Shown here in pieces: positions 19,190 to 55,998 of a stretch of 64,000 bases of DNA. Numbering within the stretch: the first letter of the stretch is position 1; each line of letters opens with the position of its first letter. The notes below the pieces were generated by a model, which saw nothing but the letters and a program-made list of their open reading frames with translations, did no database searches and had not been told where the DNA came from. A program made the translations under genes and the position numbers. The stretch lies in assembly GCA_030765645.1 (NCBI GenBank), contig JAVCCE010000076.1:62001-126000 (forward strand), written 5' to 3'. The stretch is from Candidatus Hinthialibacter antarcticus. Its GTDB lineage: Bacteria; Hinthialibacterota; Hinthialibacteria; Hinthialibacterales; Hinthialibacteraceae.

Positions 19190-19276
19190 GTAGGGTGGTG
19201 TTGAGCGCAAGCGAAACCCACCAATGTAAGCCTATTTAAAACAACGGTGGAATTCATTGCATTCATCTCACCCTAC
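19190..19276 (+). repeat. Paired-hairpin GTAGGGTGG repeat, copy 1
   Basis: Begins GTAGGGTGG and ends TCACCCTAC. Internally, GAGCGCAAGCGAAACCCACC closes the first hairpin and GGTGGAATTCATTGCATTCA opens the second. An inverted copy sits at 55912-55998, with shared flanking sequence (GTATCAAGTAGGGTGG). The same end sequences bracket the EVE-HNH gene at 47929-48970. Confidence 0.75.
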
Positions 19277-47769: not shown

Positions 47770-47833
47770 GCATAGTTTTGGCGGGTGGCGAGCCAAGGCC
47801 GAAGACCAGCCCTTGATGTAAGAGAATTGATAC

Positions 47834-47914
47834 GGCTTGGGTGCATCTCTCTTCGCTTCGGTGCGGGCTTTTAGGCCCTTTTGCACAGGTGCTCACAGAG
47901 ATGTCCCCCAAGCC
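47834..47914 (-). repeat. Covarying hairpin repeat, copy 3
   Basis: The outer arms GGCTTGGG and CCCAAGCC pair perfectly, as do CATCTCT and AGAGATG. The centre GTGCGGGCTTTTAGGCCC is the reverse complement of the family core. Inverted relative to copies 1 and 2. It ends 14 bases before the left hairpin of the EVE-HNH unit. Confidence 0.8.
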
Positions 47915-47927
47915 TTGATTCACCCAG

Positions 47928-47966
47928 GGTAGGGTGGGCTCGTTCGACGAAGGCGAACAGCCCACC
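47928..47966 (+). repeat. Left hairpin of the EVE-HNH unit
   Basis: GGTAGGGTGGGCT, a loop of about 18 bases, then AGCCCACC. The first 15 bases match the reverse complement of the right hairpin at 48944-48971, giving terminal inverted repeats around a 1-kb unit. Confidence 0.8.
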
Positions 47967-48025
47967 AAGCAATGTTTCAAATTATGAAAATGATTATTTG
48001 AAAATTTTATTTAAGGAGAAAGCAG

Positions 48026-48940
48026 ATGAAAGTTTGGTGGTGTAACCAATCAGAATGGTGGGAAAAAGAACATAACGAATCCCTTGTATGCAGCGTACCA
48101 GATGAAGGTAATTCTACTTTTAGAAAGACAGTCGAAAGTGTGAAAAAAGGAGATGTAATTGTCCATTGTGCAAAAAAAAAGGTAATAGCATTTAGTCAAG
48201 CTATGGAAGATGGTAAATGGAGGGAAAATAAAATTGATGGAGAAGGTTGGTGTTTTAAAACTGAATATTTTGATTTAAAAAAAAATCCAATACAAAAAGA
48301 TAAATTCGTCCACATTCTTGAACCCGGCAAATTTACTGGTTACCCAATTAACAAGAACTATGATATTAATCAAGGATATTTTTATCCTTTCGATGAAGAA
48401 GGTTTAAGTGTAATCCTTCAATATGTTGATGAGCCAAAACCGTTACCTAAATGGCTTGAGAACCTCAAATCGTTCAAAGTTAAATTAGATGAAGTTTCAC
48501 AAGAACTTGAAGAAGAATTTGACCCAAAATCCTCTAAAGAAGCTAAAGAGAAGGTAGAAAGAAGTATTCGATTACGTCGTGGTCAACCAAAATTCCGAGG
48601 TCTGTTATTACGATATTATAATGGTCGTTGTGCAGTTACAGGCTGTAATTTTGAAGGTGCTTTGGAGGCTGCTCATATTACACCTTATAATGGCGATAGA
48701 ACAAATAATCCACAAAATGGCATCCTTCTTAGAGCGGACATTCATACGCTTTGGGATTTAAATCTAATCGCTGTAGACCCGAAAACCTATAAAGTGATAA
48801 TTCATAAAGCTCTAAAAAAGACTGAGTATGAAAAGTTGAATGGAGCATCATTGACCTTGCCTAAAACAAAGAAATATTGGCCTTCAAAAGAGGCGTTATT
48901 GTATCAATTGAAATGTTTGAAAGAAAATATCAACTATTAA
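48026..48940 (+). CDS. EVE/PUA-like and HNH endonuclease, modification-dependent restriction type
   Basis: A 304-residue predicted nuclease. The N-terminal part (residues 1-135) begins MKVWWCNQSEWW and has KKGDVIVHCAKKKVIAFSQA, as in EVE/PUA-like domains that flip modified bases. A charged linker (about 150-185) leads to an HNH domain: GRCAVTGCNFEGALEAAHITPY, NPQNGILLRADIHTLWD and LIAVDP. This pairing is known from modification-dependent (type IV-like) restriction enzymes, so a role against phages with modified DNA is likely. AAGGAGAA lies 5-12 bases upstream. The gene is visibly A+T-rich compared with its neighbours and is bounded by inverted hairpins, suggesting horizontal entry. Confidence 0.82.
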   Translation: MKVWWCNQSEWWEKEHNESLVCSVPDEGNSTFRKTVESVKKGDVIVHCAKKKVIAFSQAMEDGKWRENKIDGEGWCFKTEYFDLKKNPIQKDKFVHILEPGKFTGYPINKNYDINQGYFYPFDEEGLSVILQYVDEPKPLPKWLENLKSFKVKLDEVSQELEEEFDPKSSKEAKEKVERSIRLRRGQPKFRGLLLRYYNGRCAVTGCNFEGALEAAHITPYNGDRTNNPQNGILLRADIHTLWDLNLIAVDPKTYKVIIHKALKKTEYEKLNGASLTLPKTKKYWPSKEALLYQLKCLKENINY

Positions 48941-48943
48941 ATT

Positions 48944-48971
48944 GTGGGCTGCTTCGCGAGCCCACCCTACC
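48944..48971 (-). repeat. Right hairpin of the EVE-HNH unit
   Basis: GTGGGCT-GCTTCGCG-AGCCCACCCTACC. On the minus strand it reads GGTAGGGTGGGCTCG, the same as the left hairpin. It starts 3 bases after the stop codon of the nuclease gene. Confidence 0.8.
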
Positions 48972-49086: not shown

Positions 49087-50475
49087 TTACTCACTGCGGG
49101 AGCGTTTCATGACCATACGCATAGGGGCGCTTTTTTTAGCCGCAACCGGTTCTTTTTTCATAGCGGTCTTGGATTGCGTCTTCCTGACCTGTTCTTCAAT
49201 CTTCCGGTTCATCTCCTCGTTGCTGTCAAAGCGCTCCATGGCCTTGGTCATCATTTGATGTTGAACGTCAATTAATCGCTCCTGGCTTTTGACGACATCC
49301 AGTTTTTTCTTGCGCTCCTCTACGTTGTTCAGGGCAAGCGCTTTCTTTTTCATCAATGCGTTATAGTCAGGCGAGTTCGGGTCGAGCGTTTCTGAAGTGG
49401 CTTCAATTTCATCGAGAATCCCTTGCAACTCAGCCATGCAACTTTGAAATTCTTCCTCGAACAATTCTCCCATATATTTCACAATATCTTTATGCAGTTT
49501 CAGCATGATGCGCTGGCGCCGCAGGATATTGTGCTGTTGTGAGAAAAAGCGTTTGAAATCTAACTGGGTGGAGCCGCGCGCCCGTGCATATTTCCCGATG
49601 CTTCCCCGGGTGTTTTGCAGCAGCGCCTTCAAGTGTTTCGGGTCCGTCACTCCAAGTTTGATATAGATCAACAAGCGTAAGTAGCGTGGCAGTTCAACCA
49701 GGACGGGGTATTTCTCAAAGTGGCTTTTAATGATGCGTTCGTCATCGCGAAAGTCGTCTAATACTTTTTCAAAGGATTGCTGGCTTCTGTCGTGACGCTC
49801 TTTGAAGTCTGTGGTCTGGCTTGTGCCGTTATATCCTTCTTTTGCCAGTTTCGATAAAAAATAATTGGTGATTTCAATCAACAGCCGCCCTGACATTTCG
49901 TTGTATTGCACAACGTCATAGGCCTGATCGACAATGCTGGTGAAAAATGGAAATAGGGGATGAGAGTCATCAATCTTACTTAATTTACGGCGGACGGAAT
50001 GGACCTCTTCCGGTGTGAAGATCAGGGTAATTTCCTGGAAGCGGAACTTACGGATATTTTCATCGTCGGTTTCAATGTTGAAGAAATTTCGTAATAAAGT
50101 CCTGACTGTAATGACGCCTTCGGTCTTTTCGACGCACAGCTGGCTTTGAATGTCCATCATGGAGGTGAAAATCGCCGCGACTTCTTTGGGGCTTTTGTCT
50201 TGCACCTCTTTGCCGAGATTGTCTAGAATGTCGTGAATTTCTTTGCGCTTTTCTTGTACCGCCTGGTCTCTTTCTTTTTCTTCCTGCTCGTTTACTTTCC
50301 CAAAATCTCGGTCTTTGGTGGTATCGAATACAATTTCTCGAATCGCCTCGTGTAGATTTCCGTTCTTTTTGGCGATTTCAAGCAACTCGCGCGAGCTGGC
50401 ATTCAGATCAGGCTCTTCAGGCGAATTTTGATCTAGTTCTGTATTTTCGGTGTTGCGTTCTTCGTCCTGGTTCAA
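49087..50475 (-). CDS. Uncharacterised coiled-coil protein
   Basis: A 462-residue cytoplasmic, helical protein of unknown function. The start is set at TTG 50475, preceded by GGGGG about 8 bases upstream and a perfect TATAAT at 50504-50509; the frame also opens upstream to a GTG at 50544, but that would place the promoter inside the gene. An acidic N-terminus is followed by helices, a compact central part (ITLIFTPEEVHSVRRKLSKI, LPRYLRLLIYIKLGVTDPKH), long coils at about 330-430 and a basic tail (KKSAPMRMVMKRSRSE). No family was recognised. Confidence 0.65.
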   Translation of the reverse strand: MNQDEERNTENTELDQNSPEEPDLNASSRELLEIAKKNGNLHEAIREIVFDTTKDRDFGKVNEQEEKERDQAVQEKRKEIHDILDNLGKEVQDKSPKEVAAIFTSMMDIQSQLCVEKTEGVITVRTLLRNFFNIETDDENIRKFRFQEITLIFTPEEVHSVRRKLSKIDDSHPLFPFFTSIVDQAYDVVQYNEMSGRLLIEITNYFLSKLAKEGYNGTSQTTDFKERHDRSQQSFEKVLDDFRDDERIIKSHFEKYPVLVELPRYLRLLIYIKLGVTDPKHLKALLQNTRGSIGKYARARGSTQLDFKRFFSQQHNILRRQRIMLKLHKDIVKYMGELFEEEFQSCMAELQGILDEIEATSETLDPNSPDYNALMKKKALALNNVEERKKKLDVVKSQERLIDVQHQMMTKAMERFDSNEEMNRKIEEQVRKTQSKTAMKKEPVAAKKSAPMRMVMKRSRSE

Positions 50476-50503
50476 TGTCCCGGCCCCCGTTTCACTAAAC
50501 CTT

Positions 50504-50509
50504 ATTATA
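50504..50509 (-). promoter_or_regulatory. -10 element for the coiled-coil gene
   Basis: A perfect TATAAT on the minus strand with a poor -35 (GTATTT) 17 bases further upstream. It sits about 30 bases before the chosen TTG start. Confidence 0.5.
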
Positions 50510-50703
50510 CTCTCACTGCGATAATAAAATACAGATAAAAGCACTCATTTTTTTCTTTTCGTATTGACAGGAAGAAGGCGGCGTTGGCATTGCGTGGAGA
50601 CAATCAACTCTGACGCATCGTTGGTTGGAGCGGGATTCGCATCGAACGAAAAAAAAGGCCCCGGAATTTTCCGAAGCCTTTTGGTCTGTGCGAAACGAAA
50701 GTG

Positions 50704-55911: not shown

Positions 55912-55998
55912 GTAGGGTGGGATGAATAAAATGAATCCCACCAATGAATCAACAAAACGTTTCATTGGTGGGTTTCGCTTCGCTCAACTCCACCCTAC
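55912..55998 (-). repeat. Paired-hairpin GTAGGGTGG repeat, copy 2
   Basis: Ends GTAGGGTGG and CCACCCTAC. Inside are GGGATGAATAAAATGAATCCC and GGTGGG..CCACC arms. Inverted relative to the copy at 19190-19276, with further identity outside the ends (CTTGATAC). Confidence 0.75.

What the first reader, a model, noticed from the sequence alone, without database searches (positions are those of the whole stretch)
47834..48971. EVE-HNH nuclease gene packed between inverted copies of a genomic hairpin
The A+T-rich nuclease gene is bounded by GGTAGGGTGGGCTCG hairpins in opposite orientation (47928-47966 and 48944-48971), the right one only 3 bases after the stop. The same GTAGGGTGG ends occur at 19190-19276 and 55912-55998, where just a short spacer separates two such hairpins. 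The locus therefore looks like a paired-hairpin repeat whose spacer was replaced by a 1-kb nuclease cargo. That suggests a mobile defence unit without its own transposase, perhaps moved by a host enzyme or by the nuclease itself. The mobility model is inference.
Basis: partly seen in the sequence, partly recalled or inferred. Interest (0 to 1): 0.78.

Follow-up and report, generated by a model that had tools for sequence, protein, structure and literature searches.

The report
Foreign restriction gene between REP hairpins
A single foreign-looking gene for an enzyme predicted to cut modified phage DNA sits exactly between two mirror-image copies of a repeat hairpin common in this genome; the arrangement is real and resembles that of the repeats' own transposase gene, but nothing yet shows that it moves as a unit.

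Summary
ORF 48026-48940 lies between inverted GTAGGGTGGGCT hairpins at 47929-47965 (+) and 48944-48970 (-), 3 bp after the stop. The hairpins are GTAG-tagged REPs: at least 156 in the genome, in several subfamilies. The protein is a full-length relative of the EVE-HNH restriction enzyme VcaM4I. A GC change-point test puts the A+T-rich block at 47971-48943, the inter-REP interval. The left REP keeps the inner flank typical of REP dimers (BIMEs), but its usual nearby partner is missing until 978 bp away. So the gene appears to sit inside a split REP dimer. The genome has three RAYT genes, each bracketed by its own repeat family; one uses GTAG-REPs in the same outward layout. In 2.26 Mb, only two RAYTs and this nuclease have such a bracket within 65 bp. 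One such non-RAYT gene has about a 7% chance by accident at that post-hoc cut-off. Mobility is not supported: one copy, no close relative for an empty-site test, no target duplication, and relatives elsewhere lack the hairpins. Most likely foreign DNA was captured at a REP dimer. A RAYT-mobilised cassette remains possible (about 0.15-0.2).

The parts
47929..47965 (+). left GTAG-REP, A type with a long loop (GTAGGGTGGGCTCGTTCGACGAAGGCGAACAGCCCAC)
   Evidence: an identical 37-mer occurs once more in the genome (C72:57403), beside a second HNH nuclease gene; folds z -5.4
47966..47980 (+). inner flank CAAGCAATGTTTCAA, typical of the left half of REP dimers (BIMEs); its usual nearby partner is absent here
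   Evidence: seven A-type REPs in 2.26 Mb have this flank; four of the other six have an identifiable partner REP within about 75 bp and two a degenerate CCCACC
47971..48943 (.). A+T-rich island (GC 0.33 against 0.50 outside) found by unsupervised change-point segmentation
   Evidence: support intervals about +/-20 bp; its ends fall 5 bp and 0 bp from the two REPs
48013..48018 (+). Shine-Dalgarno-like AAGGAG
   Evidence: sequence inspection
48026..48940 (+). EVE-HNH endonuclease gene, 304 aa; EVE-like region about residues 1-134 (48026-48427), HNH_2 domain residues 202-251 (48629-48778)
   Evidence: Pfam HNH_2 E=7e-16; phmmer to VcaM4I 6yex E=1.2e-10, collinear 1-258; alignment with two plasmid EVE-HNH proteins keeps the NQGY and AxHI/NGILL motifs
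48944..48970 (-). right GTAG-REP, canonical A type (GTAGGGTGGGCTCGCGAAGCAGCCCAC); lacks the final C and the inner flank seen at almost all others
   Evidence: folds z -3.7
47783..47798 (+). core of a second REP-like family (F2, GGGTGGC..AAGG), part of the repeat cluster left of the gene
47838..47908 (-). member of the large F4 hairpin family (GAGCGCCTGTGCAnAAGGGC core at about 47875-47894)
55912..55998 (.). empty REP heterodimer (BIME) of other subfamilies (C+ 55912-55941, D- 55968-55998)
19190..19276 (.). REP heterodimer: D+ 19190-19221 and a degenerate C- 19246-19276

Best explanation
A horizontally acquired, one-gene, modification-dependent (type IV) restriction enzyme of the EVE-HNH kind was inserted into, or captured at, a GTAG-REP dimer in a repeat-rich intergenic spot. 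The dimer was split so that the gene now lies between the two REPs. By homology to VcaM4I, the EVE domain should flip out 5mC/5hmC or similar modified bases and license the HNH domain to cut, restricting modified phage DNA. The REPs belong to the host: they are spread by the resident RAYT and also provide a hairpin just after the stop codon. Shown: gene family, REP identity, composition boundary, the missing dimer partner, and the presence of a RAYT. Inferred: insertion into a pre-existing dimer, the enzyme's substrate, and the REPs acting as a site of capture rather than as mobile ends.
For: Full-length collinear match to VcaM4I only; conserved EVE and HNH motifs. Nuclease found in 1 of 14 phylum genomes, the others having at most a partial HNH match. 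34% GC gene; change-point block coincides with the inter-REP interval. Left REP carries the dimer-type inner flank, and its usual partner is displaced by 978 bp. Right REP is trimmed exactly at the junction. At another locus (C72), a different PUA-like/HNH nuclease gene lies 62 bp from an identical 37-bp REP, and that dimer's second REP is truncated at the A+T-rich junction. A third island (C24, a PDC-S11-like gene) is bounded by repeats within 8 bp at both ends. REPs are documented targets for insertion sequences (PMC1525189), and DNA insertion between REP dimer partners has been noted (PMC3733652).
Against: There is no empty site in a close relative, so the order of events is inferred. Across all A+T-rich islands, ends near repeats (13 of 324 within 20 bp) are no commoner than random intergenic positions, so REPs are not a general entry point. 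GC-rich REPs can pull a composition change-point to their edge. Two independent REP insertions beside the gene would look similar.
Confidence: 0.5

Rival explanations
1. REPtron-like mobile cassette: the REP-nuclease-REP stretch moves as single-stranded DNA by the host RAYT acting in trans on the two outward-facing REPs, as RAYTs are thought to move REP dimers.
For: RAYT1 (C42:9035-9586; NF047646 E=3e-56, full length) is bracketed 12 and 32 bp away by inverted GTAG-REPs in the same layout. In 2.26 Mb only RAYT1, RAYT2 and this nuclease have an outward same-family bracket within 65 bp. Inverted same-family brackets in either orientation: 6 of 55 A+T-rich ORFs against 1 of 1066 others (p=7e-8); 3 of 52 without RAYTs (p=4e-4).
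Against: One copy. A non-RAYT bracket within 65 bp is expected 0.075 times by chance, and 0.37 times within 100 bp. In the first sample the contigs were REP-rich by choice; the held-out 757 kb gave 0 of 11 (uninformative). The other two bracketed non-RAYT genes face the opposite way. The right inner flank is missing. No target duplication. Nothing recovered in the paper searches reports RAYT moving a non-RAYT gene.
Confidence: 0.18
2. The REPs arrived after the gene. RAYT-driven REPs inserted separately at both intergenic edges of an already acquired nuclease gene; the right one sits where REPs commonly sit, just after a stop codon.
For: REPs are usually intergenic, often less than 20 bp from the 3' end of genes (PMC3733652). 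A+T-rich ORFs more often have a REP within 300 bp (10 of 40 against 68 of 1018, p=4e-4).
Against: The left REP carries a dimer-type inner flank without its normal partner, and the right REP is trimmed at the junction, which fits a split dimer better.
Confidence: 0.22
3. Chance: two unrelated REPs happen to flank a foreign gene in a repeat-dense intergenic region.
For: The left flank also holds F2 and F4 repeats. Chance expectation for one such bracket is 0.07-0.37 depending on the distance allowed, and the locus was picked by eye.
Against: Coincidence of composition edges with both REPs, the identical REP at a second nuclease locus, and the missing dimer partner.
Confidence: 0.08
4. Assembly artefact: reads of another organism joined at the repeat.
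For: Draft genome in 78 contigs; the gene differs strongly in GC.
Against: REPs are 27-37 bp, shorter than ordinary reads; the gene is deep inside a 130-kb contig; the genome has other genes of similar GC.
Confidence: 0.02

Closest known systems
[quoted passage not shown] PMC7897488; PMC7641849)
   Same: EVE-like N-terminus and C-terminal HNH; single gene; similar length (304 against 309 aa); conserved base-pocket tyrosine motif (NQGY) and HNH residues
   Different: About 27% identical to plasmid EVE-HNH relatives; the HNH half (HNH_2) is closer to HNH proteins of Massilia and Vibrio with other N-termini; the EVE half alone is weak by sequence (E=0.07)
GTAG-REP dimers / BIMEs / REPINs (PMC3733652, PMC2817692, PMC3116915)
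   Same: GTAG tag, 20-40 bp palindrome, more than 100 intergenic copies, outward-tag dimers, cognate RAYT in the genome
   Different: Here the dimer spacer is 978 bp and holds a gene; usual spacers are 20-100 bp
REPtron (RAYT gene flanked by REPs; PMC3733652, PMC8266576)
   Same: Gene flanked at 60 and 3 bp by inverted same-family REPs with outward GTAG; RAYT1 in this genome has the same layout
   Different: Cargo is a nuclease, not a RAYT; no proof that it is a unit of transposition
Insertion sequences that target REPs (PMC1525189)
   Same: Foreign DNA located in a REP dimer
   Different: No transposase gene or IS ends in the insert

Membership tests
EVE-HNH type IV restriction endonuclease | N-terminal EVE (PUA-superfamily) domain | tested here: inconclusive
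   EVE half alone matches VcaM4I at E=0.07; the full protein is collinear from residue 1; NQGY and VKxGD motifs aligned with bridging homologues, one of which matches VcaM4I at 2.5e-40. Single-sequence structure model too poor to use (pLDDT 35)
EVE-HNH type IV restriction endonuclease | C-terminal HNH (beta-beta-alpha-Me) nuclease domain with catalytic residues | tested here: met
   PF13391 E=7e-16; H217 and N231 invariant in the alignment, DIH motif present
EVE-HNH type IV restriction endonuclease | Cleaves DNA containing modified cytosine | not testable with these tools
   needs biochemistry
GTAG-REP / BIME | High-copy intergenic palindrome tagged with GTAG at one end | tested here: met
   156 strict-pattern copies against 4 for the reversed control pattern; hairpins fold
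GTAG-REP / BIME | Cognate RAYT flanked by the same REPs | tested here: met
   C42 RAYT1, NF047646 E=2.7e-56, inverted B-type REPs 12 and 32 bp away
REPtron | Bracketed gene encodes a Y1 (HUH) tyrosine transposase | tested here: not met
   The bracketed gene is an HNH nuclease
Non-autonomous mobile cassette | More than one genomic location, or precise empty site | tested here: inconclusive
   One copy in the genome; no same-genus genome; flanks not syntenic in family members. In G002 homologues of the two outer genes are 174 bp apart, but orthology is uncertain and the gap spans four genes

The most novel reading that the evidence does not exclude
REP dimers can carry non-transposase cargo: a REP-bracketed single-gene defence cassette mobilised in trans by a RAYT, that is, a REPtron in which a type IV restriction gene replaces the transposase.
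Probability: 0.15. Interest if true: 0.75.

Novelty: new member of a known kind. Interest (0 to 1): 0.36.

Why it matters
If REPs merely mark where foreign DNA was captured, this is a tidy example of a restriction gene landing in a repeat hot spot of a small, poorly sampled phylum. If RAYTs can move REP-bracketed cargo, it would give the widespread and functionally puzzling RAYT/REP systems a role in spreading defence genes, testable in vitro with RAYT1 and these REPs.

Tried and rejected
Structure prediction of the nuclease without an alignment gave pLDDT 35 and was discarded. The general claim 'foreign islands end at REPs' is not supported: 13 of 324 island ends lie within 20 bp of a repeat, against 370 of 6000 random intergenic positions. 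Held-out replication of the bracket enrichment: 11 A+T-rich ORFs in 757 kb, none bracketed; too few to decide. Synteny or empty-site test in five same-family genomes: flanks not conserved except a 485/442-aa gene pair in G002. Target-site duplication outside the REPs: none of 8 bp or more. Inverted repeats around homologues in Vibrio, Massilia and others: no GTAG hairpin, only isolated 11-bp chance matches. PADLOC on other A+T-rich genes gave one further type IV-like HNH and one weak Csx1 match, so defence genes are not confined to REP-flanked loci.

Full report
Check of the observation. The hairpins, their orientation, the gene and the 3-bp gap to the stop codon are as described. The hairpins are GTAG-tagged REPs. 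A strict pattern finds 156 in the 5.15-Mb genome against 4 for the reversed control, in several subfamilies. The nuclease is bounded by two A-type copies (42 matches to the A-type pattern, which also takes in a few related E-type copies).

The gene. Pfam gives HNH_2. The only convincing solved relative is VcaM4I, the EVE-HNH restriction enzyme, aligned from residue 1. The EVE half alone is weak, but an alignment with two plasmid EVE-HNH proteins, one of which matches VcaM4I at 2.5e-40, keeps the pocket and HNH motifs. In the 14 held genomes of the phylum no other full relative exists. At 34% GC it looks acquired.

Fit between gene and REPs. Segmentation by base composition alone puts the A+T-rich block at window 47971-48943: 5 bp inside the left REP and flush with the right one. 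The left REP is followed by CAAGCAATGTTTCAA, an inner flank shared with six other A-type REPs in 2.26 Mb. Four of those have an identifiable inverted partner within about 75 bp and two a degenerate one. Here the next inverted REP is the one after the nuclease, 978 bp away. The right REP lacks the final C and inner flank present at almost all others. The simplest reading is a REP dimer split by the insert.

The REP machinery. The genome has three Y1 transposase genes. RAYT1 (C42) is a full-length REP-associated tyrosine transposase bracketed by inverted B-type GTAG-REPs. RAYT2 (C74) is bracketed by a different repeat family (F2). RAYT3 (C1) is bracketed by a third (F3) and is truncated. Repeat-specific REPtrons in genomes with several REP families are known (PMC3733652).

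How special is the bracket? In the first 1.5 Mb, inverted same-family repeats within 100 bp on both sides flank 6 of 55 A+T-rich ORFs against 1 of 1066 others (p=7e-8). Three of the six are the RAYTs. Without them it is 3 of 52 (p=4e-4); without the discovery gene too, 2 of 51 (p=0.006). With outward tags and a 65-bp limit over 2.26 Mb, only RAYT1, RAYT2 and the nuclease qualify. A non-RAYT case is expected 0.075 times by chance at 65 bp and 0.37 at 100 bp. Cut-offs were chosen after seeing the data, the first sample was REP-rich by design, and the held-out part was uninformative. So the bracket is suggestive, not conclusive.

Other REP-neighbouring foreign genes. At C72:57502-58290 a second putative type IV enzyme (PUA-like N-terminus, McrA-like HNH) lies 62 bp from a REP identical to the left nuclease REP, and the second REP of that dimer is truncated at the junction. 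At C24 an island with a PDC-S11-like gene is bounded by repeats of two families. A third HNH enzyme at C52:70583 has only an F4 repeat on one side. Yet island ends in general are not enriched for repeats. These cases fit occasional capture of foreign DNA at REP dimers better than a dedicated cassette system.

Mobility. It is not shown. There is one copy, no same-genus genome, no target duplication, and no hairpins around distant homologues. In one family member (G002) homologues of the 485-aa and 442-aa genes that bound the wider low-GC block are adjacent, which hints that the whole 3.3-kb block is variable, but orthology is uncertain.

Verdict. A new member of the EVE-HNH restriction family located inside what looks like a split GTAG-REP dimer. 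The mobile-defence-unit idea is not excluded but is the less likely reading.

Noticed in passing
G000:C72:57502-58290 (locus L110 9503-10291): Second A+T-rich HNH nuclease with a PUA-like N-terminus (P0001), next to the only other copy of the 37-bp left REP; that dimer's B-type REP is cut off at the junction.
   Followed up: partly
G000:C52:70583-71344 (locus L247 1102-1863): Third A+T-rich HNH gene (mREase_IV-like, E=9e-5), with an F4 repeat 97 bp downstream.
   Followed up: partly
G000:C42:9035-9586, C74:59940-60497, C1:146750-147157: Three RAYT genes each bracketed by a different repeat family (GTAG-REP, GGGTGGCAAGGGCAAG, GGGGAGGGCGAACC); the third is truncated and probably frameshifted.
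   Followed up: partly
G000:C24:26921-27940 (L111): A+T-rich island with a DUF2846 lipoprotein and a DUF4268/PDC-S11-like gene, bounded within 8 bp by an F2 repeat and a GTAG-REP.
   Followed up: partly
genome-wide; window 47838-47908 is one copy: F4: an 80-bp hairpin family (core copied about 71 times in 1.5 Mb) without an identified transposase; F5: a CCCCCCTTAAAAAGGGGGG family.
   Followed up: no
G000:C12:22462, 22886, 23213: B-type REPs recur at equivalent positions in tandem, similar sequences, possibly inside a repeated gene.
   Followed up: no
window 49087-50544: 485-aa protein without a Pfam family, conserved across the family, with two paralogues in this genome.
   Followed up: no
G005: 114 copies of a related GTAG-REP (GTAGGGTGGGCTCAAAGCGAAGCGTAGCCCAC); one inverted pair 264 bp apart (C113) and no inverted pair with 0.3-3 kb spacing among the listed places.
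   Followed up: partly
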